Positions 5,963-40,295 of a stretch of DNA of 64,000 nt are shown here, in pieces. The stretch comes from Solidesulfovibrio magneticus RS-1 (GTDB lineage Bacteria; Desulfobacterota; Desulfovibrionia; Desulfovibrionales; Desulfovibrionaceae): NCBI RefSeq assembly GCF_000010665.1, contig NC_012796.1, positions 4,674,001-4,738,000 on the forward strand, given 5' to 3'. Position 1 is the first letter of the stretch, and each line of letters opens with the position of its first letter. Position numbers and translations under genes: made by a program. The notes beneath the pieces were generated by a model, which worked only from the letters and a program-made list of their open reading frames with translations, searched no databases and was not told the origin of the DNA.

Positions 5963-6011
5963 TTGCTTGGCGTCCCCAAGGGGATTTGAACCCCTGTTAC
6001 CGGCGTGAAAG
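5963..6011 (-). other. tRNA-Glu(TTC) 3' half, probable att site, left copy
   Basis: Read on the minus strand, this is the 3' half of tRNA-Glu. It begins in the anticodon loop (CTTTCAC, anticodon TTC) and has the 3' anticodon arm GCCGG. The T arm AGGGGTTCAAATCCCCT follows, and the acceptor strand ends TGGGGACGCCA with encoded CCA. The 5' half is absent: no GTCCCCA acceptor strand lies upstream. The same 49 bases occur at 40247-40295. A break inside the anticodon loop is a usual crossover point of tyrosine integrases, so I read it as an attachment-site scar. Confidence 0.85.
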
Positions 6012-6230
6012 GACCATACCCCTACGCGGATTTTGCTGACTTTTTCAATGATCCTGGGCAATTCGTAACGAGCTATGACTAGATATACCGAGCTATCCGC
6101 AACTCAATTTACTTCTCGGTTTACTTCTCCGACCAAACCTCGAAGCGCACATCAGGCTGGCAAGGAAAACAACTTGCCTGGTTTCGAATGGAGCGCTCGC
6201 CCCCATCCTCTTCCCTACCCTCTTCTCCAA

Positions 6231-6250
6231 ACCCACCCTGCTACCCACCC
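6231..6250. repeat. 20-bp motif shared with 40387-40406, possible integrase arm site
   Basis: ACCCACCCTGCTACCCACCC occurs here and again beside the right tRNA-Glu fragment. On the minus strand it contains GGGTGGGT twice, 12 bp apart, as expected of arm-type binding sites near att. Its function is inferred from position only. The surrounding 6012-6272 holds no gene. Confidence 0.4.
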
Positions 6251-6272
6251 CCAGGCAATCTTCGCGGGAGAT

Positions 6273-6806
6273 TCAGGGGCATGCACTGGCTGAGACGACA
6301 GTTTCCATATTCTCGGTCGCCATGCCCCCAGCATTCCGGGCCGTTGAAAGCTCCTCATTGGAAAAGACACGCCCAATGTCCAGGATCAAGACAAAGCGTT
6401 CGTTGAGCTTGCCCAAGCCAATGAGGAAACGAGTATCAACGGCTGACCCCATCCGAGGAGGCGGATCAATCCTGTCCTGTTCTAACTCCAGAACCTCCTG
6501 CACCGAATCCGCCAGGAGGCCGATGAGGATAAAATCTCCTTCGGTTCGAACCTCAGCGATGATGATGCAGGTATTTGTGGTGAATACCGTCCCCGACATT
6601 CCGAACTTGAGACGCAGATCTATCACCGGGATGGCCTTTTCCCTAACGTTGATCACGCCGCGTATAAAGTCAGGCATTCTCGGAATGCGGGTTATATTGG
6701 TATTGTCTAAAATTTCCTTGACCCAGCCGATATCCAAGGCAAAAAGCTCGTCACCGAGAGTAAACGTCAGGTATTGATGCATGGCCATAATATCAGCGCT
6801 GCTCAT
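6273..6806 (-). CDS. cheW: CheW chemotaxis coupling protein
   Basis: Adaptor linking chemoreceptors to the CheA kinase at the inner membrane. About 177 residues from the ATG at 6806, which has a GGGAGGA site seven bases upstream. The CheW fold is clear: YLTFTLGDELFALDI, EILDNTNITRIPRMPDFIRG, then VINVREKAIPVIDLRLKFG, the classic receptor/kinase contact region, and FLIGLGKLNERFVLILDI near the end. It is about 20 residues longer at the C-terminus than a minimal CheW. It follows the MCP gene by 19 bp on the same strand, so the two form an operon; no cheA is in the window. Confidence 0.95.
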   Translation of the reverse strand: MSSADIMAMHQYLTFTLGDELFALDIGWVKEILDNTNITRIPRMPDFIRGVINVREKAIPVIDLRLKFGMSGTVFTTNTCIIIAEVRTEGDFILIGLLADSVQEVLELEQDRIDPPPRMGSAVDTRFLIGLGKLNERFVLILDIGRVFSNEELSTARNAGGMATENMETVVSASACP

Positions 6807-6825
6807 GACGCTATCCTCCCGTCGA

Positions 6826-8841
6826 CTAGAACCGTTCAAAATCATCGTCAGCGTCGTGCATTTCTATAGCGACACCCTTGGATTTGACTGCCTTCGACCT
6901 GGCTGGGTTCGCCATGCGCCCTGCGGGGAGAGCCTTTGTGGCCCTATGACCTCTCGTCACTCCAGATCCTGTCACCTGAAAAAAGGAAATACTGCCTTGG
7001 AGTTGCTCAGCTTGTGCAGAAAGCTCTTCTGAGGTCGAGGCCATTTCTTCCGAAGCGGAGGCATTTTGCTGCACCACCTGATCAAGCTGCTGAATGGCCT
7101 TGTTGATTTGGCTGGCACCAGAATTTTGCTCATTGCTGGAGGCGGCAATCTCTTGAACCAACTCCGCCGTCCGCTGGATATCAGGCACCATCTTGGTCAG
7201 CATGTTGCCAGCTCTTTCAGCGATCTGGACACTTGAGGAAGATAAGTTGCTGATTTCGGCGGCAGCGGCCCCGCTCCGCTCGGCCAACTTCCGAACCTCG
7301 GCGGCAACCACAGCGAAGCCCTTGCCGTGTTCTCCGGCACGGGCTGCCTCAATAGCGGCGTTAAGGGCCAGCAGATTGGTTTGGCGGGCGATTTCCTCAA
7401 TGATGGATATTTTTTCGGCGATGTTTTTCATCGCGGCGACTGCTTGGGTTACGGCCACTCCGCCCTCTTCTGCATCCGTGGCAGCCTTTACCGCAATGGC
7501 CTGTGTTTGCTGGGCATTGTCGGCATTTTGCTTGATATTTGAGGACATCTGCTCCATAGACGAGGAAATCTCCTCAACACTAGCTGCCTGCTCGGTAGCC
7601 CCCTGGGACATGCTCTGCGCTGAAGCAGATAATTCTTCGCTGCCTGAGGCAACGTTCTCAGTTGCAGACTGAATTTCGGCTACGACCTCGCGCAGACGGT
7701 CGACCATGTCATTAAGGGCCGTAGCCAACACTCCGATTTCATCCTTTTGGTCAATGTCCAACTTTTGGGTGAAGTCCCCTCGGGACATGGCCTGGGCGAA
7801 ACCAACACCTTTGAGCACCGGCCCGGTAATAGCGCGGGTCAACGCCACAGCAATGATAACGCCGAGAAGAAGCGCGAAAGCCAAGCCAATAATCACGGTC
7901 GTGGAGGCCGAAGCCAAGCTTGAGACGGTATCATTGGCGATACTCTGCGTCTGCCCCATGCCGGCCTTGGCCGTTTCTTGGGCCGCTTCCAGTACCTGCT
8001 CGCCGACTTCGTTTCGTTTTGTTCCAAGCGTTTGCAACGTTTTCCAAGCGGCAACGTACTCAGTCATAGCGGCCTTGTACTTACCACCTGCCTCTTTTAT
8101 TGTGGCCAGTTGCCTAAGATTATTTTCTTGGCGAGTCACCGTCTTTAACTTATCAAGTAGTTCATCAATTTTTTTAAAATTATTGAGCGCATCGTCTACT
8201 AATTGAATATGCCCTGTAGCCTGTGCCTTAAAATTTTTGACGCGAACATCATTCCCTAAATCTATCACCTCGTTCGCCTCTTCTATTTTACTACGTCTCT
8301 CTTGGAGTTTCGCGACAGGGGCTCCTTCATTGATCTCCTTTTCGAAGGCAGCATCTTGGCTTTCCATAAAATCACTACAACTTTTCAAATACTCGCCTGC
8401 TGAGGCGTCCATCGTCTTACGCAAAGATTCCATTGCCTTAATACTGACAGTCGTCGCTTCAATCAGTTTTCCATACTCGTCCACTTTGCCTTGTGCCTTT
8501 GCGACGTCTTCCTTTAGCTTTGTCAGCTTGGGGAACTTGTCCGAATGCGCCTTGGCTTTGGCCAGTTGGGCGTTGACGTTGGCAAACTCTTTTTTCGCAG
8601 TTTCTAGAAATTTTTCATCTTCACTGAGTGCATAACCACGCATAGCATACATGGTCATCATCGAATCACGTTCAACGTCATTCGCCACAGCTACTTCTGG
8701 CACGTATTCTTGCGCCAATCGCGTGGCCCCCTGCTCCACTTTGCTCATGGCCACCACAGCCAAGCCCCCCAAGAGGCAAGCGATGAGGATAAGAGCTCCG
8801 AAGCCGCCCCCGATCTTAATGCCAAGCCTGATATTCTTCAT
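6826..8841 (-). CDS. methyl-accepting chemotaxis protein
   Basis: Membrane chemoreceptor, 671 residues. TM1 (about 10-30, [17 protein letters not shown]) is followed by a helical periplasmic sensor of roughly 270 residues, large enough for a helical bimodular (HBM-type) or long four-helix bundle. TM2 (about 312-335) and HAMP ([11 protein letters not shown]) come next. The cytoplasmic signalling hairpin tip is [19 protein letters not shown] followed by [17 protein letters not shown]. The C-terminus has no NWETF-like pentapeptide. An AGGAGG site precedes the ATG at 8841. It pairs with cheW downstream. The ligand cannot be predicted. Confidence 0.95.
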
Positions 8842-8934
8842 CAGTCCCTCCTGGTGGCAAAAGTAAAAAAAATTTTTTTAACCATACCGTATTTTTCAGA
8901 TCTTTGACAATGGGGAACAACACCTAGGCGGACA

Positions 8935-9320
8935 TGGCTATCCTCGGATGGTGACGGGTATGGCGTCTATGCTACGTGAAGTGAAGTGGGCGGGGCTGCG
9001 GCAGACTGCCAGGCGCACCTGATTCGGCAAGCCAAGGCACTCTCGGAACGGAAAGACACCGAAATAGCAAAGTGCGCACGTAGATGCACAAGGAGCGGAT
9101 GCGGTTTTGCCATATGGCGAAAAAGCCCCGCTCTCAGTCGGCGAATGGAACATGTTCTAAGCCCATTTGATTCTCCTCGTGAGCAAGTACTACGACCGGC
9201 AAAACGACGCCGGCAAACTGACCAGACGCTTAGTTCAGGAGATGGAATATCTGTGGCAGTTCCTCAAGGAAGCCGGGGTGGAGCCGGCGAATAATCACAC
9301 CGTGCGGATTCTGTGTATTC
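8935..9320 (+). pseudogene. IS66-like transposase fragment, frameshifted
   Basis: Remnant of a different IS66-type transposase from the two full elements. One frame reads WAGLRQTCQAHLIRQAKAL then SERKDTEIAKC. After a shift, MRFCHMAKKP appears, then VGEWNMF in yet another frame, and finally ILLVSKYYDRQNDAGKLT and WQFLKEAGVEPANNH, the region before the catalytic Glu. No start codon, upstream half or end is visible. It fills the gap between the MCP gene and the next kinase; nothing else is recognisable in 8842-9461. Confidence 0.65.
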
Positions 9321-9461
9321 CCCCCGGAGGTTTTGAATATATATTTGACCTTTAGCCGGACAGCACTGTATACCAAACTAGACTCCTTCTGCTTGACCAG
9401 ATATTTCGGTGGCCCAGATTTACACTTCCAGGATTTGCTGCATATATGAATGGTGGTATAT

Positions 9462-12368
9462 ATGAACAACTGGCTTACTGTCGCCCTTTTCGCCGGGACC
9501 GTCTGTTTTTCAATTGTCGGATTCCTGTATTGCTTCCTCTATGCCAAATATCGCAGTGCCTCGCTGATGCTATGGGGCATGGCGTGGCTGTCTCACGCGT
9601 TGCGCAATGTGACCATCCTTGTCAACACGACCTACGGCCCCATCGTCTACCTGGCCATCATGGAACAGATGCTGGTGGCCTGCACGGGATCGCTTCTGCT
9701 CCTGGGGTCGCTCTATTACGTCGGCAAGTCGCCAAGGAGATGGTTCTTCGCCGCAGTGGGAGGGGCCGTGCTGTGGCCCGTCGCGGCAGTGATGTTCGCC
9801 GTCCCCAATCCGTGGTTCTTCATCCCCAATTATTTTTTCTTCGGATCGAGCCAGATTTATAACGGCCTGGTCCTCATCCGAAAGTCGCGCGGCGAGAGCA
9901 TCGGCGGGCGCATTGCCGGATGCGCGATGATCCTGTGGGGCCTTCACCACTTCGACTATCCTTTCCTGCGTCCGATGGCCTGGTTTGCCCCATGGGGATT
10001 CCTCATCGGCGCGGTACTCGGACTTCTTGCCGCAGTGGCCATCATAATGGCCTACATGGAAGCGCTCCAAGCTGAATTGTCGCGCAGCGAGAAACGGTTT
10101 CGATCATTGTTTCACGGAAACAAGGCTCTATTCCTACTCATCGAACCGCTCTCCGGGAAAATCACGGACGCCAGCGCGGGTGCGGTCGATTTCTACGGAT
10201 ACAGCCTGGAAGAACTCAAGGGCATGAACATCAGCCAAATCAACATGCTCTCACCGGAAGAGATTGCATCCATGCGCGCCCTGGCCATGTCTGGATACAA
10301 GCAGCAGTTCATATTCCCCCACAAACTCAAGACCGGGGACGTCAAGACCGTTGAGGTAATTTCCACCCCCGTGGAGAGTGGGGGCAAGGAGCTATTGTTT
10401 TCCATCGTCCAGGACGTCACCGCGCGGCAAAAGGCGTTGGAAGACCTTGAGGAAAGCCGGGAGCGCCTGCGTGCCGTCGTGGAGAACGCGGCCGCCGCCA
10501 TCTACCTCGCAGATGAGAGCGGCCGGCTCGTGGAGGTCAACGCTGCGGCGGAACAGCAGACCGGCTATATGCGAGAAGAGCTCCTGGCAATGGCCATCCC
10601 GGATGTCGACGCGAATTCATCCAAGAACGACCCTGCTTTTTTCCAGGAAGTCATGCAGTCCGCAACCGGCATGACGTTTGAGTCGCGCCACAGGCACAAA
10701 GACGGCACAATTTTTCCGGTCGAGGTTCGTGCAGCCAAGCTGGAACTGCACAGCGTCCCGCATGTGCTGGGGATCGTGTCGGACCTTACGTCCCGAAAAG
10801 ATACCGAGCGCAAGCTGGCGGAAGCAAACAGGACCCTCGCCGCCGTCCTGGACGGCATCCCAGCCTTGGTAAACGTGGTGGATGTCTCCACCCGGGAAGT
10901 CTTGTTCATGAACCGGGCGCTGAAGGAGGCTCTGGGCAGGGATGGTGTCGGCGGAGTCTGCCATGCCATCTTCCGGGACAAGTCCTGCGTCTGTGAGAAC
11001 TGTCCCATCGAAAGGATGAGCGCGAATACGGAAGGGGAGGCCAACGCCAGCGTTTGGGAGGATCGCAACCCCATTTCAGGCAGATGGCAACTTAACCACG
11101 ACCGCATCCTGCCATGGTTCGACGGCAAGACTGTGCGCGTGCAGATCTCCCTGGACATCGGCCAGCGCAAACAGGCCGAAGAGGCCCTCAAGCAAAGCAA
11201 GGAAGAGGCGGAATCAGCCAACAAGGCAAAATCAGTATTTCTTGCCAACATGAGCCATGAAATACGCACCCCGCTCAACGGCATTCTCGGAATGCTTCAA
11301 TTGCTTAAGACTACTGATCCGAATGACGAACAGAAAGAGTACCTGTTGGGAGCGATCCGATCTACAAATAGACTGACCCGTCTTCTTTCTGATATTCTTG
11401 ACATCTCAAGGATTGAAGCAGGTAAGATGCAGATTGTTGAGTCAGAATTCGACATCAAGATGATTTGGGACTCCATTAGCGAACTTTTTGACATGGAGGC
11501 GCGTGGAAAAGGACTTCTTTTAGAGTTCAGGTGGGATAACATCCTGCCCATGCTATTGGTTGGAGACGAGGCTCGGCTTCGACAAATCCTTTTTAACCTT
11601 GTAGGAAACGCAATAAAATTTACTGAAAAAGGAAAAATCCGAATCGATGCTTCTTTATTGCCGAGATCAAGCGACTCTTCGGTCCGTGTGTTGGTGACAG
11701 TCAGTGACACGGGGATTGGGATTTCCGAGGAACAACTCAAGGACATTTTTGAGCCATTTGTTCAGGCTGAGGGCTCATATACTCGACGTTTCCAAGGGGC
11801 TGGCCTGGGACTTTCCATCGTTCGTCGGCTGGTGAAGCTCCTGGATGGAGACATATCGATCGATAGCACCCCTGGCGAAGGGACGACATTCTATCTCTCG
11901 CTGCCGTTCAAGCTTCCTGCAACTAAGCAGAAACCAGAGGAACTTGTCGCGCATGAAGTGTCATCCCCTGAACACAGTCCTTCGCGCATACTTCTCGCTG
12001 AGGATGATTCATTAAGCTCAATTACCTGCAAGAGGATGCTTGAAAAATCCGGCTACTCAGTCACTGCCGTAAAGGATGGCCAGGAAGCGCTACAACGACT
12101 GACTAAAGAGGACTTCGACCTGATCCTTATGGATGTCCAAATGCCTGTCATGGACGGCGTCGAAGCCACAAAGGCAATCAGGGGGGCAAGCAATCTTGGA
12201 GCGAAGTCGAGCATACCCATTGTAGCCATGACAGCATACGCAATGACTGGAGACAAAGAATCATTTTTGGCAGCGGGCATGGACGATTATATTTCGAAGC
12301 CTGTGGATAAGGCAGCGCTGGTTGAGGTGATTGAGAGAGTTATTTGCATGAAGGAAAAGATTCAATGA
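9462..12368 (+). CDS. membrane hybrid sensor histidine kinase (7TM-PAS-HK-REC)
   Basis: Inner-membrane hybrid kinase, about 968 residues from the ATG at 9462 (GGTGG upstream). The first 205 residues hold about six or seven hydrophobic segments. Two clear PAS domains follow (about 210-440). A third PAS-like unit has a Cys cluster (CHAIFRDKSCVCENCP), which might bind metal or sense redox. The H-box is [12 protein letters not shown] (His near 599), with N and G boxes NLVGNAIKFTEKG and [13 protein letters not shown] receiver has Asp near 891 in LILMDVQMPVMDG. There is no HPt domain, so phosphate must pass to another protein. The kinase-receiver half is closely related to the genes ending at 24524 and 40436. 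Confidence 0.93.
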   Translation: MNNWLTVALFAGTVCFSIVGFLYCFLYAKYRSASLMLWGMAWLSHALRNVTILVNTTYGPIVYLAIMEQMLVACTGSLLLLGSLYYVGKSPRRWFFAAVGGAVLWPVAAVMFAVPNPWFFIPNYFFFGSSQIYNGLVLIRKSRGESIGGRIAGCAMILWGLHHFDYPFLRPMAWFAPWGFLIGAVLGLLAAVAIIMAYMEALQAELSRSEKRFRSLFHGNKALFLLIEPLSGKITDASAGAVDFYGYSLEELKGMNISQINMLSPEEIASMRALAMSGYKQQFIFPHKLKTGDVKTVEVISTPVESGGKELLFSIVQDVTARQKALEDLEESRERLRAVVENAAAAIYLADESGRLVEVNAAAEQQTGYMREELLAMAIPDVDANSSKNDPAFFQEVMQSATGMTFESRHRHKDGTIFPVEVRAAKLELHSVPHVLGIVSDLTSRKDTERKLAEANRTLAAVLDGIPALVNVVDVSTREVLFMNRALKEALGRDGVGGVCHAIFRDKSCVCENCPIERMSANTEGEANASVWEDRNPISGRWQLNHDRILPWFDGKTVRVQISLDIGQRKQAEEALKQSKEEAESANKAKSVFLANMSHEIRTPLNGILGMLQLLKTTDPNDEQKEYLLGAIRSTNRLTRLLSDILDISRIEAGKMQIVESEFDIKMIWDSISELFDMEARGKGLLLEFRWDNILPMLLVGDEARLRQILFNLVGNAIKFTEKGKIRIDASLLPRSSDSSVRVLVTVSDTGIGISEEQLKDIFEPFVQAEGSYTRRFQGAGLGLSIVRRLVKLLDGDISIDSTPGEGTTFYLSLPFKLPATKQKPEELVAHEVSSPEHSPSRILLAEDDSLSSITCKRMLEKSGYSVTAVKDGQEALQRLTKEDFDLILMDVQMPVMDGVEATKAIRGASNLGAKSSIPIVAMTAYAMTGDKESFLAAGMDDYISKPVDKAALVEVIERVICMKEKIQ

Positions 12369-12547
12369 TGCAGCGGCAGAAGAGAGGCTACGTGATGACG
12401 GGGGACGGGGCGTGGCTTTGTCTAATTGGATGGGTGCTGGCGGGAATATATCACTGCCTGCTGAACGCCCCTTCCTGACTGTGAATCCAGTTGCCGTGGG
12501 ATTGGAGGTGAAGCGATGGAACTGGCCATCATCGGAGCAGTCACGAG

Positions 12548-15569: not shown

Positions 15570-15717
15570 TCAACGCACGAGTCTGTTGCGTCCGCCGGTT
15601 TTAGCGGCGTAGAGCTTCTCGTCGGCGACTTTGAGGAGATCCTCGAATCGCCCCAAATCCTCCTCGACCAGGCCGATACTGACAGTGAAGCATATCGTTG
15701 CGTCGGTCGTCTCCAGC

Positions 15718-15725
15718 TTTGATTC
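15718..15725. repeat. IS66 copy 2 target-site duplication, left
   Basis: TTTGATTC directly before the left end of the element; the same eight bases follow the right end at 18173-18180. Eight bp is the normal IS66 duplication length. Confidence 0.95.
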
Positions 15726-27118: not shown

Positions 27119-27129
27119 ACCCCTCACCC

Positions 27130-31467: not shown

Positions 31468-31527
31468 CAGGGCGCAAAGCTAGACGACAAATAACACCAC
31501 AAACTTCAGCAACCATTTGATATACAT
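31468..31527 (-). pseudogene. YD-repeat protein, 5' fragment (signal peptide)
   Basis: The ATG at 31527 begins MYIKWLLKFVVLFVV followed by an in-frame TAG, where copy 2 (62348) reads MHIKWLMKFVVFFVVLLCA. Only the signal peptide is left before the IS256 end. The 3' part of the gene lies at 24263-24489. Upstream sequence to about 31790 matches the region before the intact copy. Confidence 0.7.
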
Positions 31528-31750
31528 AGAAATCCTAAAAACTTGCGCCACCCCACGTTAAGCACCACACCTCGTCACCTTCTGCACAACAAGCTACAAG
31601 CAGCCCCGTGGGGTAAAATGCAAAAAAAATGGCCAAGATGCTGCGTAGGGTGGTAAATCAAAAAAACAAACCCCGCAATTTCCCGCACTAACCCTCAAAA
31701 ACCAGCCCTCAAGTGGTAAACAAGCCCTTCTCTGCCCTGCCCTATCATCA

Positions 31751-31780
31751 AGCCCCACTCCCTTCCAAGAATGGGGCTTT
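31751..31780 (-). terminator. terminator after the DUF932 gene, copy 1
   Basis: On the minus strand AAAAGCCCCATTC, a short loop and GAGTGGGGCTT form a GC-rich hairpin just downstream of the DUF932 stop. The run of T is short, so termination strength is uncertain. A similar hairpin lies at 62568-62597 after copy 2. The stretch 31530-31750 has no gene. Confidence 0.55.
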
Positions 31781-31787
31781 TCCTAAC

Positions 31788-32720
31788 TCAGTTGACCATC
31801 CCCAGGATCATCCCGCCAACCCGCTGCAGCCGATAGCCACTCTCCACCGTCAGCCGAGGGTACTGGGCCGCCTTGGTGTACGCGTTAATCACATGGAACA
31901 TGGTCTCGCCCTGCTCCTGCGGCCACGCCCACTCAACGGCTTCAACTTCGGGCTTTCCCAATTGAAACTGGAGGTTGAATGACTTCATGGTCGCAATCGG
32001 CTCCTTCACTTCCGACTCCAGGGAGAACTGGAGCCTTTGTTTCTCATCCAACAGCTTGGCACCGACATCGCCAATGGCCGTGGGGAACTCATCCAGTATC
32101 CGCGTCGAAATGTGGCGATACGAAGCCTCGACTTCCGTCTTCGAAATGAGTCCATTGGTGCACACCAGCCGCAACAGGAACGCCGAAATGGACAAGGCCG
32201 CCAACCCGATCTCCGAATTGCCAAAGGAAATACCGGGCCTTACGCGATCGTTTCCATTAACAGCAAATTCCTGCCCTTGGTCAAGGATGGAGAGCGACAT
32301 GAACTCGTGATCCAGGTGACATTGCACCTCAAGCTCCTCGCCAAAGCCCATCTCGGCAAGCTTATTCAAAACCGTCATGTTATCCACAGGCACGTAGCGA
32401 GGGGTGAACACAGCCCTGACATCATCACCGTCGAACCGAAGGTACAGATCCTCATTGCGTTCCCGGGCCAGCCAATGGTTCAGGTTCTGCGCTTGCAACT
32501 CGGGTGGGCACTTCTTCAGATATTGCAGCGGCACACCTAACCGATACGACAACGATCGCTGGGCCATGTGCCGCAACTCATGCACCTCAGTGCCGATTCG
32601 AATCGATTCCAGGTCATTGAATTCGATATGGCGCACCGGCACAATCTGGTCATGGCAGTTTACGGACATCCGTTCCACCTTCTCCATCACCTTCCCAAGG
32701 GTCGTCAGCTTGCCATTCAC
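31788..32720 (-). CDS. DUF932-type phage/plasmid-related protein, copy 1
   Basis: 310-residue protein of the DUF932 group, often found on phages and plasmids; biochemical role unknown. Typical stretches are LSYRLGVPLQYLKKCPPELQ, NLNHWLARERNEDLYLRFDG, VRAVFTPRYVPVDNMTVL and LVCTNGLISKTEVEASYRHI. I use the GTG at 32720, which overlaps the previous stop (GTGA) and has GGAGGT upstream. The second copy at 63538 starts the same way. The gene is last in the set helicase - predicted nuclease - DUF932 and is followed by a hairpin. It is about 97 percent identical to copy 2. Confidence 0.85.
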   Translation of the reverse strand: MNGKLTTLGKVMEKVERMSVNCHDQIVPVRHIEFNDLESIRIGTEVHELRHMAQRSLSYRLGVPLQYLKKCPPELQAQNLNHWLARERNEDLYLRFDGDDVRAVFTPRYVPVDNMTVLNKLAEMGFGEELEVQCHLDHEFMSLSILDQGQEFAVNGNDRVRPGISFGNSEIGLAALSISAFLLRLVCTNGLISKTEVEASYRHISTRILDEFPTAIGDVGAKLLDEKQRLQFSLESEVKEPIATMKSFNLQFQLGKPEVEAVEWAWPQEQGETMFHVINAYTKAAQYPRLTVESGYRLQRVGGMILGMVN

Positions 32721-33262
32721 GACCGCACCTCCTGGCTGCTCGACGGCACGACACCATGCCCATGCACCTCCACCACCGGTTCGCAAGGAATGGCCACGAC
32801 CGACGCTTCGATGTCGAAGATGGCCACGGCCACCGGCATCGAAATGGTCGGGTACAGGGACTCGACTTCCCGAATCACCAATTCCTTTGTCGAACCAAAC
32901 GGGCTCTTGGCGCTGCGTTCACCTGTGAGCAGCAACAAGCCGACATCGATTTTCCCCAGGTCGTACCCGAGCTGTAGCCGAACGAGCCCTTCAAGGATGT
33001 ATTCATAGGCGTGGAAGTTTGCCTCGATGGCGATGCGCTGCAAACAGCCCTTGTACTGATACCGGCGGCCTTCGATGATGGGCAGGTTCCCGTTGTCGCG
33101 CCAGCCGCAATCTTCCAGGCTGCTCTTGAGCCGACGCCCTTTGAACGGCGACTCAGGAAGCCAATCATCGACGTACCCCAGGGTATCCTTGACAATATTG
33201 GTCATCCCCTTTTCCTCGATGACCATCTTGGAATCTCTGAAATGGAGCAATTCATAAGACAT
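32717..33262 (-). CDS. predicted BglII/BstYI-like nuclease-fold protein, copy 1
   Basis: 181-residue soluble protein. The segment IEANFHAYEYILEGLVRLQL followed by GKIDVGLLLL resembles the core of BglII/BstYI-type restriction endonucleases, in which an acidic strand is followed by a KIDVGIEI-like strand. The rest (DWLPESPFKGRRLKSSLEDC, STKELVIREVESLYPTISMP) fits a compact alpha/beta protein. This is recognition by pattern, not a firm assignment. I start it at 33262 (MSYELLHF), which has GGAGG upstream. It overlaps the DUF932 start by four bases and follows the helicase by 32 bp. No DNA methylase lies nearby, so a simple restriction-modification pair is unlikely. Confidence 0.55.
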   Translation of the reverse strand: MSYELLHFRDSKMVIEEKGMTNIVKDTLGYVDDWLPESPFKGRRLKSSLEDCGWRDNGNLPIIEGRRYQYKGCLQRIAIEANFHAYEYILEGLVRLQLGYDLGKIDVGLLLLTGERSAKSPFGSTKELVIREVESLYPTISMPVAVAIFDIEASVVAIPCEPVVEVHGHGVVPSSSQEVRS

Positions 33263-33294
33263 AGAAGCCTCCATCATGGGCTTGGGATCTGTTT

Positions 33295-35148
33295 TCAGGA
33301 GTCGATGGCAGCCAGGTCGCCGGTCATCTCATCGATGAAGATGGACCTTTTGGCGGGCTGCCCCAGGTGGTTGTGCGAGTAGGTCACGTAGAGCCGATCC
33401 ATGGCGCGGGATAAGGCGACGAAGCAGATCCTTCTCTCTTCCTCCAAGTCGCCGCGCTTGGTGGGCATGATGCCTTCGACCAACCCGACCACGAACACCA
33501 CGGGAAATTCGAGTCCCTTGGCCTTGTGGATGGTCATGAGCTTCACGCCACTGGGGTCACGGCTGCAGGTTTCGTCTTCAACCGTAGCCACATAGGTCAG
33601 GAACTCACTGATGGATGCGTACCGGGCCGCCGACTGCAGCAGCTGGTTCAGGTTGAGCACGGCCTGGTTGTCAGGAGAGGGAATATCCTTGTCAGTGACG
33701 AACCGGTCGTAATCCAGCCGCTGGCGCAGCTTCGCCAACACCTCGGCCGGCCCCATCTCCCCTTCATTCTGAATGAATGATTCCATAAGCCGCACGAACT
33801 CATGGACATTTCTCCTGATATAGGGGCTGTCGAAGCTCATCTCCCGAAGGGCTTGATACAGGCTGCAGGATGCCTCATTGGCCACCCCTGCCACCTGCTC
33901 CATGAACTTCTTCCCCAGGTATCTGTTGGGAGCGTTGATGATCCGTTGCAAAGATTCATCTCCGACCACCGAACCGGGATCTTCAATGAACCGCAGATAA
34001 TCGAGCAGGATTCTAACCTCACGGCGCTTGTAGAAGCTCATGCCGTTGTCGATGTAGAAGGGAATGCCAGCTCTCACAAAGACGTTTTGCAATATTTCCG
34101 ACTGGAAGTTGGCTCGGTAAAGCACCGCCATATCGCTGTACGCTGTGCCATCAGACAGATGAAGGTGCTTGATCTCATTGGCGACCAGACACGCTTCCTC
34201 TTCCTCATTGAAGGTGTCGATGACAAACAGGTCATGGTTGCCGCCTGGCTTGTGTGCGATAAGCTCCTTGGGGATCTTCCGCTGGTTGTGATCGATGAGC
34301 TTCTGACACGCGGCCAGGATCGCCGGGGTGGAACGGTAATTGACGTTGAGCACGATCTCCTGAGCCGAGGGGAATATCTGCTTGAACCGAAGGATGTTCC
34401 CGATGCTGGCTCCGTTGAACGCGTAGATGCTCTGCCAATCGTCGCCGCAAGCCCAAAACGAGCCCCGGCCACTCTCCGCAATCAGCGCCTGGAGCACGGC
34501 CAACTGCGCCGGATTGGTATCCTGGTACTCGTCAACGAGGATGTGGGGATACACGTCATGGTATTTTTCAGCGCCGCCCTCATGGGCAAGGAAACGATGC
34601 GCCTGAAGGAGCAGGTCATCGAAATCGTAGAGATACCGGATGGCCTTTTGCTCCTCATACTCCTTGAACACCATGGCCGTTTTCTGCTTCGACTGGTCTT
34701 CACCGTAGAGTTCAATGAACTCTTCAGGGCTGATAAGGTTGCTCTTGGCCAAGCTGATATCTTGCAACACCCCACCGATGGCCAAGTCTTTGACCCCCAA
34801 TGAGCGCATAATCGTCGACACCATGGTCATCTGCTCGGAGCCTGAGACGATATTGAAGTATCGGCCTTCGGACTTGAGCAGCCGCAGACAAAACGAATGG
34901 ATGGTATACAAGTGGACTCGACTGGCTTCTCCATGGAGAACCAACTCCAATCGTTCCCGCATCTGCTCGGCAGCCTGACGGGTGTAGGTCAGCCCCAGAA
35001 TGTTCTCCGGGGCGATCCCATGGTCATTGACAAGCCGGCCAATTCGTTCCGTCATCGTCTTGGTCTTTCCGGAACCAGGGACAGCGACAACCAATGCGAT
35101 CCCGGTATGAAACTGCGCCGCCTCCAACTGTTTGGCGTTAAGGGACAT
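33295..35148 (-). CDS. UvrD/Rep-type superfamily 1 DNA helicase
   Basis: 3'-5' DNA helicase-like ATPase, 617 residues from the ATG at 35148 (AAGGAGG upstream). Motifs in order: AVPGSGKTKTM (Walker A), LGLTYTRQAAEQM (Ia), HILVDEYQDTNPAQ (Walker B), CGDDWQSIYAFNGA (III), LNVNYRSTPAIL (IV), LMTIHKAKGLEFPVV (V) and CFVALSRAMDRLYVTYS (VI). It is about 100 residues shorter than UvrD/PcrA, mainly at the C-terminus. Directly upstream is the end of a RecB-like nuclease gene, and downstream are a predicted nuclease and a DUF932 protein, all on one strand. The context suggests a recombination or defence cassette rather than housekeeping repair. Confidence 0.92.
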   Translation of the reverse strand: MSLNAKQLEAAQFHTGIALVVAVPGSGKTKTMTERIGRLVNDHGIAPENILGLTYTRQAAEQMRERLELVLHGEASRVHLYTIHSFCLRLLKSEGRYFNIVSGSEQMTMVSTIMRSLGVKDLAIGGVLQDISLAKSNLISPEEFIELYGEDQSKQKTAMVFKEYEEQKAIRYLYDFDDLLLQAHRFLAHEGGAEKYHDVYPHILVDEYQDTNPAQLAVLQALIAESGRGSFWACGDDWQSIYAFNGASIGNILRFKQIFPSAQEIVLNVNYRSTPAILAACQKLIDHNQRKIPKELIAHKPGGNHDLFVIDTFNEEEEACLVANEIKHLHLSDGTAYSDMAVLYRANFQSEILQNVFVRAGIPFYIDNGMSFYKRREVRILLDYLRFIEDPGSVVGDESLQRIINAPNRYLGKKFMEQVAGVANEASCSLYQALREMSFDSPYIRRNVHEFVRLMESFIQNEGEMGPAEVLAKLRQRLDYDRFVTDKDIPSPDNQAVLNLNQLLQSAARYASISEFLTYVATVEDETCSRDPSGVKLMTIHKAKGLEFPVVFVVGLVEGIMPTKRGDLEEERRICFVALSRAMDRLYVTYSHNHLGQPAKRSIFIDEMTGDLAAIDS

Positions 35149-35161
35149 GATCCCTCCTTGT

Positions 35162-35329
35162 TCAATTTGCGAACCAATCCCGACAGCACTGCTGATACGA
35201 ACAGCCCTTGCACTTCCAGGACGTGTCATTGGGGATGAACACGCCTTGCATGATTCCACGATAGACAGCCTGAATCTTCTTCATGGCTCGGGACGAAATG
35301 TGTCGAGATAATACGGTGGTGCGACGCAT
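35162..35329 (-). pseudogene. RecB/Cas4-like PD-(D/E)XK nuclease C-terminal remnant
   Basis: A 55-residue reading frame ends 13 bp before the helicase start. It contains KKIQAVYRGIMQGVFIPN, then TSWKCKGCSYQQCC and RDWFAN. The pattern of an Arg/Gly/Phe segment followed by CxxCxYQxxC is the C-terminal Cys region of RecB-family/Cas4-like nucleases. The catalytic part is missing, so this is either a truncated gene or a small remnant. Identification rests on one short motif. Confidence 0.5.
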
Positions 35330-35486
35330 TTTATAATGCGCAGACGCCTACGGGTGTGGTATAGGCTAGGTTAAGGAGCCACCGGAGGAGAGACAGAATG
35401 CTGTTGCAGGATGGGGGTTGACTAACACCAGAGTTGTTTACTTACAGTAATTATTAGTACACATATGCATTTTGAAGGTGAATCGT

Positions 35487-35954
35487 ATGGGCAGGATCGA
35501 ATGGACACCAGCGCTAAGTATTGGCTTAGAAAACATTGATGAAGAGCACAAAAAGCTAATCGCAATATGCAACAAGCTGGCCCACAATATAAAAGGACCA
35601 AGCAATAGCCAAGTTATTACTGAAGAATTTAAAGATCTCCGAGCATATACTGTTTACCACTTTAGCAACGAAGAGAAGTACCAAAAAACAATTCATTATC
35701 CAGAAGCAAATGCACATGCTCAAGAACATGCCCGGCTAAGAAAAAGCGTCAAAGATTTCCAACAATCTCTATACAAAGAGGGTTACATACCGCAGCAGAC
35801 TGTCATTAATTTTTTAAAAGACTGGCTAATCAACCACGTTCTTCGTGAAGACATGAAAATAGGACAGTTCGCAAGGTCAAAGATGACCACCGGAACCTCT
35901 CAAGAGCTAAGGTCGCAACCAAAAGAGAATGTTGATCCTAGCATTGTATCATAA
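35487..35954 (+). CDS. bacteriohemerythrin
   Basis: Cytoplasmic O2-binding di-iron protein of 155 residues from the ATG at 35487 (AAGGTG upstream). All seven iron ligands of the family are in place: His21 (IDEEHKKL), His58 and Glu62 (YHFSNEEKY), His77 and His81 (HAQEH), His117 and Asp122 (NHVLREDM). Probable role: oxygen storage, delivery or sensing. It opens an AT-rich set of same-strand genes with a REC-PP2C protein, a V4R protein and a histidine kinase. The spacing to the next gene is about 225 bp, so it may have its own promoter. The AT-rich composition contrasts with the helicase side. Confidence 0.95.
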   Translation: MGRIEWTPALSIGLENIDEEHKKLIAICNKLAHNIKGPSNSQVITEEFKDLRAYTVYHFSNEEKYQKTIHYPEANAHAQEHARLRKSVKDFQQSLYKEGYIPQQTVINFLKDWLINHVLREDMKIGQFARSKMTTGTSQELRSQPKENVDPSIVS

Positions 35955-36179
35955 ACACATTCGACAGACCAACTCACAATCTCTATCTATGCATAATGCA
36001 AATATCCTTTAAAGCTATGACATCGAGCGCTAAGGTCTTGATGGATGCAAAATAACTCAAACCCCGTGGTGTTCAAACATCAAATCTTAGTTGTTTTTTT
36101 GAAACCCGCGACAGGCCAGCTTTGCAGGTATAAGTTAGAAATTAATTCATAGGGACATTCGCTCAATGGGGACACAAAA

Positions 36180-37334
36180 GTGGGCAAAGTATTAATTGTT
36201 GACGACGAAAGAATTAATATTCACATCCTAAGTGCTGCTTTAAAGAATGATCATTCCGTAATTATTGCCATAGACGGGACAACCGCCATAGACCTTGCAC
36301 TGTCAGAACGCCCAGATTTGATTTTATTAGATATCATGATGCCAGGCATGGACGGATATGAAGCTTGTTCAAAGCTCAAAGCATCACCAGCAACTCGAGA
36401 CATCCCTATAATTTTCATCACAGCTTTAAGTGATGCCAAGAGTGAATCACACGGACTTGAGTGTGGTGCCATTGATTATATCACAAAACCCTTTAATGTT
36501 GCACTGGTAAAATCTAGAGTCAAAAACCATGTTGAGCTAAAAATTGCTAGAGATCTGCTGGCATTAAAGCAAGTTGCAATTGACGAAGCCCTTAGATCTG
36601 CAGGACTAATCCAGAAAAGCTTACTCCCCAAAAAACTCCCAAATTTTAAATCTGTAGAGTTCTCATATAAATTTCAACCATGCAATGCAATCGGAGGCGA
36701 CATTCTAAATGTTTTATGCCTTGACGACTCGCACATTGGCTTTTACTTGGTTGATGTCTCTGGCCATGGTCCATCTTCGGCCATGATTGCAGTATTGGTT
36801 TATCAGCTAATGAATCCATTCACAGGAATACTTTTGGATAACTTTACTATTCCGCCTCGAGTTAGATCGCCAGAAGAAGTCTTGAACATCCTTGATAAAG
36901 AATTTCCACTCATGCGTTTTAAGAAACACTTTACAATTATCTATGCCATCTTAAATATTACAACCGGTCTTTTGACGTACAGCAACGCAGCCCACTGTTC
37001 TCCCTTAGTTTTATCTAAAGACGGAGCACTTAAAACTCTTGACGTTTCAGGAACAGTTATTGGTCTTGCTGCCATGCCTTTTAACCAAGAAAATGTGACT
37101 ATTCACCCAGGAAGCAAAGTAGTTTTCGTTAGTGATGGTGTCGAGGAGCGCGAGGATGTTAATAAAAAGTTTTATGGCCAGGAAAGACTTCACAAAACCC
37201 TGCAAGACAGCTGTTCTTTACCGACGAATGAATTAGTTCAGGGACTTTATGATGATGTGAACCGTTTTGCTGGAACACAGCCACCATCTGATGACTTGAG
37301 CATCTTGGCTTTGGAATACAAAGGACTAAATTAA
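36180..37334 (+). CDS. response regulator with PP2C (SpoIIE/RsbU-like) phosphatase
   Basis: 384 residues, starting at a GTG with GGGGA upstream. The N-terminal receiver (1-120) has acidic pocket VDDE, phospho-acceptor Asp51 (LILLDIMMPGMDGYE) and the switch Lys in YITKPF. After a short helix linker, the PP2C-type Ser phosphatase domain has NAIGGDILNV, LVDVSGHGPSSAMIA and VFVSDGVEER, which carry metal-binding Asp residues. Such proteins dephosphorylate anti-sigma-factor antagonists. No STAS or anti-sigma gene is adjacent, so the target is unknown. The histidine kinase at 38070 is the likely phosphodonor. Confidence 0.93.
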   Translation: MGKVLIVDDERINIHILSAALKNDHSVIIAIDGTTAIDLALSERPDLILLDIMMPGMDGYEACSKLKASPATRDIPIIFITALSDAKSESHGLECGAIDYITKPFNVALVKSRVKNHVELKIARDLLALKQVAIDEALRSAGLIQKSLLPKKLPNFKSVEFSYKFQPCNAIGGDILNVLCLDDSHIGFYLVDVSGHGPSSAMIAVLVYQLMNPFTGILLDNFTIPPRVRSPEEVLNILDKEFPLMRFKKHFTIIYAILNITTGLLTYSNAAHCSPLVLSKDGALKTLDVSGTVIGLAAMPFNQENVTIHPGSKVVFVSDGVEEREDVNKKFYGQERLHKTLQDSCSLPTNELVQGLYDDVNRFAGTQPPSDDLSILALEYKGLN

Positions 37335-37524
37335 CTTATGTTTATTTTTTTAAATATGAACAACACGATATAAATTGTTGACCAAGTTAAACGAAGATGT
37401 TCTAGACAAATCTCAATCCAGGATTAAGACATACCTAACACCTGACCCTGGACAGCCCACAGTTTAATATTTGAAAGTCGGAGCCAATCAAACACACCAG
37501 TTTTTAATCTTCAAAGGGGTAATC

Positions 37525-38052
37525 ATGTTTAAAGAAGAAAGGTCCAAGCCTACTTTCAGTTGGGATCTTCTCGGCGATGTTGAACTAGGACGACCCAACC
37601 TTGGCAGGACAACAGACGTTGCAGTATATCGTCTCATGCAATTTACACTTCGTGACATTCTTATCTCTAAGCACGGTGTCCAGTCAGCAGATGAAATTTT
37701 TTACGAAGCAGGACTTTTAGCTGGAAAACAATTTTACATCAATGTTATTCGAGCCAAAGAAGATTTCAATTCATTTGTTGCAGATCTTCAAATGGCGCTA
37801 AAGACTTTAAATATAGGGATATTACGGGTTGAGTCATTTAGCACTGATGGCAAGTCTTTAACTTTGACCGTTGCTGAGGACTTGGACTGCTCAGGACTCC
37901 CTCTGTGCGAAGAACAAATATGTACCTACGATGAAGGTTTTATAGCTGGATTATTATCTGAACACACTGGACATTCTTGGGCAGTCAAAGAGGTCGATTG
38001 CTGGTGCTCTGGCGATAGAGTTTGCCGCTTTAAGGCAAACCAAATTGACTAA
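37525..38052 (+). CDS. V4R-domain protein
   Basis: 175 residues from the ATG at 37525 (AAGGGG upstream; the longer reading starts at a TTG without a site). It shows the V4R (4-vinyl reductase) small-molecule-binding fold: DVAVYRLMQFTLRDIL, AGLLAGKQFYIN, a central strand region, CTYDEGFIAGLLSEHTG, and the C-terminal Cys motif DCWCSGDRVCRF. V4R domains bind hydrocarbon or tetrapyrrole-type ligands and often sit next to signalling proteins. Here it lies 17 bp before a histidine kinase, so it probably acts as the sensor for that kinase. Confidence 0.85.
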   Translation: MFKEERSKPTFSWDLLGDVELGRPNLGRTTDVAVYRLMQFTLRDILISKHGVQSADEIFYEAGLLAGKQFYINVIRAKEDFNSFVADLQMALKTLNIGILRVESFSTDGKSLTLTVAEDLDCSGLPLCEEQICTYDEGFIAGLLSEHTGHSWAVKEVDCWCSGDRVCRFKANQID

Positions 38053-38069
38053 AAGAAGGAACTATTTCT

Positions 38070-39608
38070 GTGATAGAGTTGTCAGAAGATCTAGTTGATT
38101 CTCTTTCTGAGGTCATATTCAACCTGATACACGGGAAGAAAACTCCTCCTATCGTGCTTCCTGACTCTTATCCTGAAAATGAATTCCGACAGTTGGTAGG
38201 ATATGTTAACAAGTTCATAGTGTCATACGACGACTTTGCTGAATACATGTACGCGCTATCACGAGGTGAACTTGACAAGACTCCACCAAAGTCGGGACTT
38301 AAGGTTTTGCACTCCTACAAAAGTCTTCAAAGTCATTTGCTGCACTTGACGTGGATAGCTCAGCAGATCGCCGCTGGTGATTTTTCTCAACGCGTCGACT
38401 TTATGGGAGATTTTTCAGTTGCCTTTAATCAGATGGCTGAAGATCTGTCCAAGGCTTTCCATCGCATCGAATGTCAAAACAAAGAACTTTCAGATTTAAA
38501 TTTTTCTTTGGAGCGAAACATTAAGGATTTGATCCAAGCCAAACAAAAATTAACAGAAAACGAAAATAAATTGGATGCAATAGTTTCAGCTGCTAGCGAT
38601 GCTATTGTATTATTTAATTCACGCGGCCTTGTCGTGCATTGGAATCGATCCGCCGAAAAGCTTTTTGGATTTTCCGCGCATGAGATTATAGGACACTCGC
38701 TTGCAGACCACATCTTGCCACCAACTGACCGCAAGGTACTGGCTGATCTGATACCTGAATTATTAAATCAATCCGGAGACAACAAAGACAGACGATTTGA
38801 AATGACTGCAATGCGTCGTGATTCATCACTTTTGCCTATCGAAATAGCATTTACATCAACACGTTACGGACATGAGAATTATGGGCTTGCCATTATCCGC
38901 GACATAACAGAGCGCTTTAGACTCGAAGCACTTAAACGTGATGTCGAGAGAATAACGAGACATGATCTAAAAGCACCCCTTAATGGCATTATCGGCCTAC
39001 CTCAGATAATCTTAGATGACTACGATTTACCCCAAGAAGTCCGCGAATTCTTAATCTTAATCAAAGACAGTGGCTACGCGATGCTCAAAATGATAGAGCT
39101 TTCTCTCGATTTATACAAAATGGAGACAGGTACTTATATTTTCAGTCCAGATTCTGTAGATATTACAGCCACCCTCAAGCAAATAACCAATGAATTGCTA
39201 CCATATTTCACTGCTAAGCAACTAAAAATTAATTACAAATGGGAGCAACAAGGCCCCCTTTCAAACTCCCCCATCTTCGTTGAGGGCGAAAGGCTTTTGT
39301 GCTACTCAATGTTTTCAAATTTAATTAAGAATGCACTAGAAGCTGCACCTGCAAACAGCGAAATAATGATCAACATCACAGCAGGCAATAAAGTCTTAAC
39401 AGAAATTCACAACTTTGGAGTTATCCCAAACAAAATACATGATGTATTCTTTGATAAATACGTAACAGAAGGCAAAAAACAAGGAACAGGACTAGGCACG
39501 TATTCAGCAAGATTATTCGCAAAGACTCAAAATGGAGATATTGGGTTTACGTCTACTGAAGAACTAGGGACTACTGTCTGGGTATCTATGATGCCTGCAA
39601 GTAAATAA
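38070..39608 (+). CDS. soluble HAMP-PAS histidine kinase
   Basis: 512 residues starting at a GTG with AAGGA upstream. No membrane segment is visible. A HAMP-like region (IAAGDFSQRVDFMGDFSVAF) and coiled coil precede one PAS domain (about 165-285, IVLFNSRGLVVHWNRSAEKL, closing with IRDITERFRLEAL). The H-box is the less usual ERITRHDLKAPLNGI, followed by N-box FSNLIKNALEAAP and G-box QGTGLGTYSARLF. It is the last gene of the AT-rich set and is closely coupled to the V4R gene. Probable phosphotransfer to the REC-PP2C protein is an inference from adjacency. 39609-40210 has no gene that I recognise. Confidence 0.9.
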   Translation: MIELSEDLVDSLSEVIFNLIHGKKTPPIVLPDSYPENEFRQLVGYVNKFIVSYDDFAEYMYALSRGELDKTPPKSGLKVLHSYKSLQSHLLHLTWIAQQIAAGDFSQRVDFMGDFSVAFNQMAEDLSKAFHRIECQNKELSDLNFSLERNIKDLIQAKQKLTENENKLDAIVSAASDAIVLFNSRGLVVHWNRSAEKLFGFSAHEIIGHSLADHILPPTDRKVLADLIPELLNQSGDNKDRRFEMTAMRRDSSLLPIEIAFTSTRYGHENYGLAIIRDITERFRLEALKRDVERITRHDLKAPLNGIIGLPQIILDDYDLPQEVREFLILIKDSGYAMLKMIELSLDLYKMETGTYIFSPDSVDITATLKQITNELLPYFTAKQLKINYKWEQQGPLSNSPIFVEGERLLCYSMFSNLIKNALEAAPANSEIMINITAGNKVLTEIHNFGVIPNKIHDVFFDKYVTEGKKQGTGLGTYSARLFAKTQNGDIGFTSTEELGTTVWVSMMPASK

Positions 39609-40210
39609 AATTTTCTAAAACAGAAACTTTTTAAGAAATAAGTCATGACCTCCCCTCCGGCTCCAGCGTATCCTACTAGGGTAGAGACTCATAAGGAACG
39701 GTTCGGAACGACAAGTACTTATTTCATACCGAATTACGATGAAATTGCTGCGTTGCAATTCAAGACCATTATTCGCAAGTAGGAAAATTTCTGCCCGCTG
39801 TCTGAGGAGATTTAACTCATGTGGTATCTAGAAAGTTTTAAGTGTTTTCCTAGGGTAGACAGCGACCAATAGCCCAAATCACCCCGAGAAGGCCAGAGAC
39901 CGTCGAATGGGGCCATGGACCTCACTTCTCCGACAAACCGCCGTGTATGGGCATTTTTACGGCCCTGGTGACGTTGCCCAAGCCGAACACTCCGACCCAA
40001 CATGCCGGGCCAACCAAATCGACGGCTCAGCTTCATCTTATTTGTCCAAGACAACAGGCAAATACGCCAGATTTTCACGCGCACCACACGAATTATTGCC
40101 CTGACTCACGGCAGAATTATCAGTAGCGCTCCCAGCCCACTAATATGTTGGACAATTTCCCCGGGACACCGGCGGGATATTGAGAAATGTGCCGATTGTG
40201 TGTCCACAAC

Positions 40211-40242
40211 AAAAAAAGGGCTATCCCGGAAGGATAACCCTT
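40211..40242 (-). terminator. rho-independent terminator after right tRNA-Glu fragment
   Basis: On the minus strand AGGGTTATCC and GGATAGCCCT pair with one mismatch around a five-base loop and are followed by seven T. Its sequence differs from the terminator at 5923-5957 although both follow the same tRNA half. Confidence 0.8.
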
Positions 40243-40246
40243 TGAT

Positions 40247-40295
40247 TTGCTTGGCGTCCCCAAGGGGATTTGAACCCCTGTTACCGGCGTGAAAG
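40247..40295 (-). other. tRNA-Glu(TTC) 3' half, probable att site, right copy
   Basis: The same 49 bases as at 5963-6011, in the same orientation: anticodon-loop end CTTTCAC, T arm AGGGGTTCAAATCCCCT, acceptor strand and CCA. Sequence on the element side is different (GTGTCTTTCAC here, GGTCCTTTCAC on the left), and no 5' half exists. Two such scars in direct order fit two elements integrated one after another at one tRNA-Glu gene that would lie beyond the right edge. Confidence 0.85.

What the first reader, a model, noticed from the sequence alone, without database searches (positions are those of the whole stretch)
5963..40295. Two tRNA-Glu 3' halves in direct order: stacked integrative elements
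An identical 49-bp segment that starts in the tRNA-Glu anticodon loop and ends with the encoded CCA occurs at 5963-6011 and 40247-40295. Both are on the minus strand, both are followed by a (different) terminator, and neither has a 5' half. By the known mechanism of tyrosine integrases at tRNA genes, each is the far-end scar of an element, and the intact tRNA should lie to the right of 64 kb. The CRISPR-Cas locus would then sit in the element nearest the tRNA.
Basis: partly seen in the sequence, partly recalled or inferred. Interest (0 to 1): 0.75.

Follow-up and report, generated by a model that had tools for sequence, protein, structure and literature searches.

The report
Stacked mobile elements beside tRNA gene
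Several pieces of mobile DNA, the outermost one carrying a CRISPR immune system, have been inserted one after another into the same tRNA gene of a sulfate-reducing bacterium, each leaving a copied tRNA end as a scar; a known process, here confirmed with a relative that lacks the newest insertion.

Summary
In detail: an identical 49-bp tRNA-Glu 3' segment lies at 5963-6011 (A) and 40247-40295 (B), and no intact tRNA was found in the window. The main prediction holds: an intact tRNA-Glu(TTC) lies 18 kb right of the window with a convergent tyrosine integrase beside it. Between B and this tRNA lies a 41.75-kb element (el1) with a complete type I-F CRISPR-Cas locus. Both its ends carry the same tandem arm-type repeat, and relative G012 aligns continuously (1,739 bp, 92.9%) across the site with el1 removed. 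The stack goes on to the left: four co-oriented fragments in 152 kb; tRNA-Glu(CTC) has a second stack. A looks like the far-end scar of an element with another arm repeat, but the A-B stretch has no integrase and no near-end arm sites: a remnant, not a clean element. Two more copies of the fragment lie away from any tRNA-Glu, one in an IS66 composite transposon with 8-bp target duplications, one inside an element at tRNA-Leu; so a lone fragment is not always an in-place scar. The integrase belongs to a clade found mostly at tRNA-Glu/Asp 3' ends, whose arm repeats vary with the N-terminal domain. Known kind, well resolved here.

The parts
5963..6011 (-). Fragment A: displaced tRNA-Glu 3' half (far-end attachment-site scar), plus 5 bp beyond the CCA
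40247..40295 (-). Fragment B: displaced tRNA-Glu 3' half, attR of element 1
   Evidence: uninterrupted site in G012
40296..64000 (.). Left 23.7 kb of element 1 (41.75 kb in all; it ends 18 kb right of the window at the intact tRNA-Glu(TTC), contig position 4756047)
40385..40405 (+). Arm-type tandem repeat 'alpha' (CTACCCACC twice, 12 bp apart) at the far end of element 1; the same pair (13 bp apart) lies between the integrase and the tRNA at the near end
6108..6129 (+). Arm-type tandem repeat 'beta' (TTTACTTCTC twice, 12 bp apart) right of fragment A; the same pair lies next to the truncated integrase 71 kb to the left
6012..40246 (.). A-B interval ('element 2'): far end of a beta-type element plus signalling cargo; no integrase and no near-end arm sites found
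6273..15118 (.). Module CheW - MCP - hybrid histidine kinase - dCache/GGDEF next to fragment A; the GGDEF protein has 4 copies in the genome at E 1e-60 or better, each 5-9 kb from a displaced tRNA-Glu fragment
15725..18172 (-). IS66-family insertion sequence inside the A-B interval, with 8-bp target duplication TTTGATTC
31788..35259 (-). DUF932 - 186 aa - UvrD helicase module; most of it recurs in element 1 and in two other islands of this genome
40436..48065 (.). Hybrid histidine kinase (PocR/PAS/GAF) and dCache/GGDEF protein next to fragment B
51357..52585 (-). CRISPR array of element 1: 21 repeats of 28 bp, 20 spacers (strand recalled from the usual I-F repeat orientation)
52713..61187 (-). 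Type I-F cas genes: Csy4, Csy3, Csy2, Csy1, Cas3 with Cas2 domain, Cas1
62606..63538 (-). DUF932 protein, start of element 1's DNA-processing block (UvrD, PD-(D/E)XK, SSB, two DUF927-type primase/helicases and a D5-type protein lie right of the window)

Best explanation
Repeated site-specific integration at the 3' half of tRNA-Glu(TTC). A tyrosine integrase recombines an element's attP, which carries a copy of the tRNA 3' half from the anticodon loop to just past the CCA, with the tRNA gene. The tRNA is rebuilt with the element's 3' half, and the old 3' half with its terminator is pushed to the far end. The next element does the same, so scars accumulate in tandem on the 3' side. B is the far end (attR) of the most recent, structurally intact element (el1), which carries the integrase, replication genes and the type I-F CRISPR-Cas locus. 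A is most likely the far end of an older element with different arm sites, whose near end and integrase are gone. Shown by sequence: att cores, arm repeats, integrase, uninterrupted site in a relative, order and orientation. Inferred: that the integrase is active, and everything about the order of events left of B.
For: Intact tRNA-Glu(TTC) at contig 4756050-4756127, 18 kb right of the window, same strand as A and B. A 393-aa integrase ends 78 bp from its 3' end, on the opposite strand; six residues recalled as the recombinase active site are present (R214, K239, H315, R318, H341, Y350). All 4 displaced halves of the TTC stack and both of the CTC stack lie on the 3' side in the tRNA's orientation. 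The 9-mer CTACCCACC occurs 5 times in 180 kb (0.5 expected, 10 first-order simulations): 2 at each end of el1, 1 right of A. Relative G012 aligns over 1,739 bp at 92.9% through the join of B's left flank with the tRNA: 430 bp left of the junction, against 142, 58 and 48 bp when the flank of the outermost fragment, of A or of the 4608769 fragment is used instead. G008 shares both outer flanks, the left one ending at the outermost fragment (4604067), with only short matches (395 bp at most) in between. Of the 80 related integrase loci kept of 152, 60 have an intact convergent tRNA within 600 bp (53 Glu, 7 Asp) and 11 more a Glu/Asp 3' half. Of 13 genus relatives, 11 have an intact tRNA-Glu(TTC) by ARAGORN, 8 of these also a displaced TTC-type half.
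Against: The A-B interval and the interval left of A have no integrase or remnant that the searches found and no near-end arm repeats. Orphan fragments in an IS66 composite transposon and in a tRNA-Leu element show that fragments also move by other routes. The left limit of the stack rests on one relative (G008); a gene of that flank was not found in 10 others at E 1e-20 (which held no positive control; G008 has it). No clear uninterrupted site for A: the longest run left of that junction among 11 relatives was 116 bp (G011), about the tRNA half plus a terminator. The seven integrases used for the clade search were partly chosen because they lie at tRNA-Glu, so the Glu preference of the clade is partly built in.
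Confidence: 0.93

Rival explanations
1. Fragment A (and what follows it) was brought to its place by IS66 transposition or homologous recombination between repeats, not by integration at the tRNA; only B is an in-place scar.
For: The right flank of A is 95.7% identical over 3.07 kb to a copy inside an IS66 composite transposon at 3.04 Mb (8-bp duplications). The A-B interval lacks an integrase and near-end arms, holds an IS66 copy, and its beta arm pair matches the near end of the remnant 71 kb to the left. The 430 bp left of B follow the tRNA directly in G012, so B's left side may be the original chromosomal flank.
Against: A lies on the correct side, strand and order for a scar, shares a 48-bp block with the tRNA and keeps its own terminator and a beta arm pair at a distance like that of other far ends. 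The IS66 copy in the interval is a simple insertion with its own 8-bp duplication.
Confidence: 0.25
2. The fragments are decayed tandem duplicates of the tRNA gene, unrelated to mobile elements.
For: Several copies in direct order near the gene.
Against: The aligned halves begin in the anticodon loop and ARAGORN finds no tRNA at any of the eight; three of the four in the TTC stack keep a 47-48-bp exact block with the tRNA while neighbours differ, the outermost is decayed; integrases and arm repeats lie at the junctions; G012 shows a 41.75-kb insertion with breakpoints in the core.
Confidence: 0.01
3. Element 1 is a prophage or a self-transmissible conjugative element rather than an integrative element of the integrase-plus-primase kind.
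For: Its helicase, nuclease, SSB, primases and integrase match phage protein families.
Against: No capsid, tail, relaxase or type IV secretion domain among the 25 el1 ORFs scanned with Pfam; a few short ORFs were not scanned.
Confidence: 0.12

Closest known systems
tRNA-gene genomic islands as defined by Islander (PMC4383910; passages seen)
   Same: Intact tDNA, displaced 3' fragment, integrase, anticodon-centred site; that paper lists 2083 of 3919 islands as anticodon-centred
   Different: Only el1 meets the full definition; older members of the stack have lost their integrases or ends
Tandem island arrays at one tDNA (Islander table: 125 tandems of two or more, 4 of three or more)
   Same: Four displaced halves in direct order beside one tRNA gene
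   Different: Islander asks that each member keep its own integrase; here one member has an intact integrase, one a truncated one and two have none found
Integrases with an N-terminal arm-binding domain that recognises arm sites near the core (PMC8138268; passages seen)
   Same: Tandem repeats flanking the core at both ends of el1; repeat sequence varies with the N-terminal domain
   Different: A clade mostly in sulfate reducers and relatives, mostly at tRNA-Glu/Asp; 35 of the 47 repeats found start 64-72 bp from the tRNA end and 44 of 47 are 12-13 bp apart
IS66-type composite transposons (family by Pfam; the 8-bp duplication rule is recalled)
   Same: Two identical direct IS copies and an 8-bp target duplication around the orphan fragment at 3.04 Mb
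   Different: The cargo is a 30-kb slice of a tRNA-Glu element with its tRNA scar
Type I-F CRISPR-Cas on genomic islands of Vibrio (PMC6360697; search listing with start of abstract only)
   Same: Full I-F gene set inside an integrative element
   Different: Host group; no spacer target found here

Membership tests
tRNA-gene integrative element (element 1) | Intact tRNA gene at one end | tested here: met
   tRNA-Glu(TTC)
tRNA-gene integrative element (element 1) | Displaced 3' fragment in the same orientation on the 3' side | tested here: met
   Fragment B, 47-bp core
tRNA-gene integrative element (element 1) | Tyrosine integrase inside, next to the tRNA | tested here: met
   393 aa, PF00589 E 1.1e-18
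tRNA-gene integrative element (element 1) | Uninterrupted site in a relative | tested here: met
   G012, 1,739-bp continuous alignment
tRNA-gene integrative element (element 1) | Excision and integration activity | not testable with these tools
   needs a bench assay
tRNA-gene integrative element (A-B interval) | Integrase inside | tested here: not met
   none in the PF00589 search or tblastn with 11 integrases at E 0.1
tRNA-gene integrative element (A-B interval) | Matching arm repeats at both ends | tested here: not met
   beta pair at the far end only
Tandem island array in the strict Islander sense | Each member has its own integrase and fragment | tested here: not met
   four fragments, one intact and one N-terminally truncated integrase
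IS66 composite transposon (orphan fragment at 3.04 Mb) | Two IS copies and a target-site duplication at the outer ends | tested here: met
   2452-bp identical direct copies, 8-bp duplication; flanks of the insert lie close together in G007, G008, G013
Integrative and conjugative element | Relaxase and type IV secretion genes | tested here: inconclusive
   none in the 25 el1 ORFs scanned; not every ORF scanned
Prophage | Capsid and tail genes | tested here: inconclusive
   none among the 25 ORFs with Pfam, nor among 10 el1 proteins with PHROGs
Type I-F CRISPR-Cas | Cas1, Cas2-3, Csy1-4 and an array | tested here: met

The most novel reading that the evidence does not exclude
A clade of tRNA-Glu/Asp-specific integrases uses arm sites of fixed geometry (two direct repeats 12-13 bp apart, mostly starting 64-72 bp from the tRNA end) whose sequence is set by the N-terminal domain. 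This works as a barcode for pairing the true ends of elements in a stack. Read this way, the stack here is scrambled: a beta-type near end with a truncated integrase lies left of, and a beta-type far end right of, an unrelated 71-kb block. tRNA scars also hitch-hike to other places by IS66 transposition and inside elements at another tRNA.
Probability: 0.6. Interest if true: 0.45.

Novelty: new member of a known kind. Interest (0 to 1): 0.36.

Why it matters
Finders of tRNA-gene islands pair a tRNA with a downstream fragment. This genome and its relatives show when that works (element 1, with an uninterrupted site in a relative) and when it misleads: fragments carried off by a composite transposon or inside another island, and intervals without an integrase. 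The arm-repeat barcode gives an independent way to pair element ends and a testable recognition code for the arm-binding domain of a widespread integrase clade.

Tried and rejected
Rejected: tandem tRNA duplication (G012 site). Considered: every fragment an in-place scar; not so for two of eight. Considered: a CRISPR-associated transposon; the I-F locus has Cas1 and a Cas3 with Cas2 domain and el1 has a tyrosine integrase; Tns proteins were not searched for as such. Spacer targets: none among the loci held apart from the array itself (best other match 16 bp); in the phage collection 13 records, all weak (best E 3e-3); in plasmids 42 records, 15 seen, long low-identity or many-piece matches that look like other CRISPR arrays (not examined further); exact scans of viral contigs with 3 of the 20 spacers found nothing. 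Uninterrupted site for A or for the whole stack: none clear among the 11 relatives compared. The left flank gene was not found in 10 relatives (no positive control in that call), so the outer limit rests on G008. The left boundary of the orphan copy at 2.09 Mb could not be fixed from relatives; its tRNA-Leu setting comes. Arm-motif correlation: one search used a script that cut many proteins short (partial correlation 0.28, 0 of 500); one search replaces it. It was given 36 of the 60 loci, picked for a repeat near 64-72 bp plus L290; two that fit (L244, L300) were left out by oversight; 35 passed, 32 entered pairs. Such matrix permutation tests can be too liberal when sequences are related. 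The number of integrase-internal control windows was not printed. Papers: searches; passages also seen of PMC11434368 and PMC9897764; no description of this stack in the listings seen, which is not proof of absence.
Full report
The observation. The 49-bp block at 5963-6011 and 40247-40295 is real and identical. It is a tRNA-Glu 3' half on the minus strand, from the anticodon loop to 5 bp past the CCA. ARAGORN finds no tRNA in the window. In the whole genome (5.3 Mb, 3 contigs; window = contig C2 4674001-4738000) 10 of 19 matches to a 75-nt query are strong (E 2e-10 or better): two intact genes, tRNA-Glu(TTC) at 4756050-4756127 and tRNA-Glu(CTC) at 4079976-4080051, and eight displaced halves.

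The prediction. The intact TTC gene lies 18 kb right of the window on the same strand, next to tRNA-Gln(CTG). A 393-aa tyrosine integrase (4754791-4755972, plus strand) ends 78 bp from its 3' end. Six residues recalled as the recombinase's active site are present. Four displaced halves lie on its 3' side, all in its orientation: at 4604010, 4608769, A and B. The CTC gene has an integrase beside it and two displaced halves at 4156655 and 4186931.

Element 1. Between B and the tRNA lie 41.75 kb. The 9-mer CTACCCACC occurs five times in the 180 kb examined (0.5 expected): twice, 12 bp apart, starting 89 and 101 bp inside B; twice, 13 bp apart, 63 and 50 bp inside the tRNA end; and once right of A. 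These look like arm-type sites of one integrase at both ends of one element. Relative G012 has the tRNA followed directly by the sequence that here lies left of B. With el1 removed in a script, the joined flanks align to G012 over 1,739 bp at 92.9% without a break, 430 bp of it left of the junction (first seen). As a comparison, the flanks left of the outermost fragment, of A and of the 4608769 fragment give 142, 58 and 48 bp left of the junction in G012. tblastn with 11 integrases finds none in the 20 kb of G012 read. El1 holds a complete type I-F CRISPR-Cas locus with 21 repeats and 20 spacers, a hybrid kinase and a GGDEF protein next to B, and a DNA-processing block: DUF932, UvrD, PD-(D/E)XK, SSB, Prim-Pol/DUF927, D5-type and AEP-TOTE/DUF927 proteins and a Ros/MucR-type regulator. 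No capsid, relaxase or secretion domain was seen among 25 ORFs scanned with Pfam.

The A-B interval. It holds chemotaxis and signalling genes (CheW, MCP, hybrid kinases, GGDEF, CheB/CheR, hemerythrin, V4R), a UvrD module and an IS66-family copy (Pfam) with its own 8-bp duplication, but no integrase was found. Right of A lies another tandem repeat, TTTACTTCTC, 12 bp apart. Its only other copies in the 180 kb lie next to the 299-aa integrase at 4607807, which lacks the N-terminal part and abuts an IS66 copy. Right of the fragment at 4608769 lies a third tandem repeat, AACCGTTT. No arm pair was found left of A or left of B. So A is most likely the far end of a beta-type element whose near end is gone; the two beta ends belong either to two damaged elements or to one that was split. 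The 430 bp left of B are the tRNA's direct downstream sequence in G012, so they may be older chromosomal flank rather than element.

Outer limit. Relative G008 (right flank 95.4% over 7.6 kb) matches in two blocks from 4597257 to the outermost fragment (4604067) and again from the tRNA onward; between them it has 83 kb with one inner fragment and only short matches to this genome (395 bp at most of those listed), against 152 kb here. A gene of that left flank was not found in 10 other relatives (no positive control in the call), so that flank may be accessory too.

Fragments that moved. The copy at 3040218 lies between two identical direct IS66 copies (3037633-3040084 and 3070519-3072970) with CGACAAAC at both outer ends. 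In G007, G008 and G013 the two outer flanks lie within 2 kb of each other. The copy at 2086254 lies between a tRNA-Leu(GAG) at 2048361, with a recombinase gene beside it, and a 23-bp copy of that tRNA's 3' end at 2092782: by inference a 44-kb element at tRNA-Leu. The dCache-GGDEF gene near A has four copies in the genome at E 1e-60 or better, each 5-9 kb from one of the fragments A, B and these two.

The integrase clade. A scan of genome contigs with an alignment of 7 integrases (partly chosen for lying at tRNA-Glu) gave 152 relatives, of which the best 80 were kept. Within 600 bp of the integrase, 60 of 80 have an intact convergent tRNA: 53 tRNA-Glu and 7 tRNA-Asp. Of the other 20, 11 have a Glu/Asp 3' half, 2 have no sequence left, 7 show nothing. 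Of the 60, 47 have a 7-mer tandem repeat 11-14 bp apart within 110 bp of the tRNA end, against 0.9 expected from shuffles and 2 in windows inside the integrase genes; 35 of the 47 start 64-72 bp from the tRNA. Among 32 sequences (496 pairs) the similarity of the repeat follows the N-terminal domain (partial rank correlation 0.36, 0 of 1000 permutations as high) and not the core-binding (0.03, 320 of 1000) or catalytic part (0.01, 465 of 1000). Of 14 element intervals in this genome and relatives, 5 share a 9-mer arm motif at both ends (el1, the tRNA-proximal CTC element, two in G003, one in G011), G010 shares a shorter one, 8 do not.

The genus. Of 13 relatives, 11 have an intact tRNA-Glu(TTC) confirmed by ARAGORN (run on the 30 loci fetched of 52 matches); 8 of these also have at least one displaced TTC-type half (G003, G005, G007, G008, G009, G010, G011, G013), and in G001, G004 and G012 none was found. 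The G011 half was found by BLAST only. In G005 and G007 the halves lie on other contigs, so linkage is not shown. G002 has a half cut by a contig end and G006 no TTC match.

Judgement. The kind is known (Islander, PMC4383910, passages; arm-binding domains, PMC8138268, passages). What is added is an uninterrupted site, the limits of the fragment-equals-scar rule, and the arm-repeat barcode.

Noticed in passing
genome contig C2, e.g. 3447583/3449037, 1664518/1665952, 998934/997449, 3424953/3426432, 1065757/1064525: About ten places have two tyrosine recombinase genes roughly 1.2-1.5 kb apart, one with an open frame of about 354-475 aa and one of about 186-240 aa; a multi-copy two-recombinase unit.
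   Followed up: no
window 1109-1272 and 3720-3883: Identical 164-bp direct repeats flank an IS66 copy (93% to the others), far longer than an 8-bp target duplication.
   Followed up: no
contig C2 3037633-3072970: 35-kb IS66 composite transposon carrying the far end of a tRNA-Glu element.
   Followed up: yes
contig C2 2048361-2092804: Probable 44-kb element at tRNA-Leu(GAG) with a tRNA-Glu fragment and some of the same cargo inside.
   Followed up: partly
G003 585487-586704, G011 191798-193015, G008 569326-570546: Integrase frames of 406-407 aa lie beside the displaced fragment at the far end of the interval instead of beside the tRNA.
   Followed up: no
contig C2 4079976-4186988: Second stack at tRNA-Glu(CTC): two displaced halves and an integrase beside the intact gene.
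   Followed up: partly
window 30692-31414: Partial Mutator-family transposase (profile positions 202-377 of 379) within the A-B interval.
   Followed up: no
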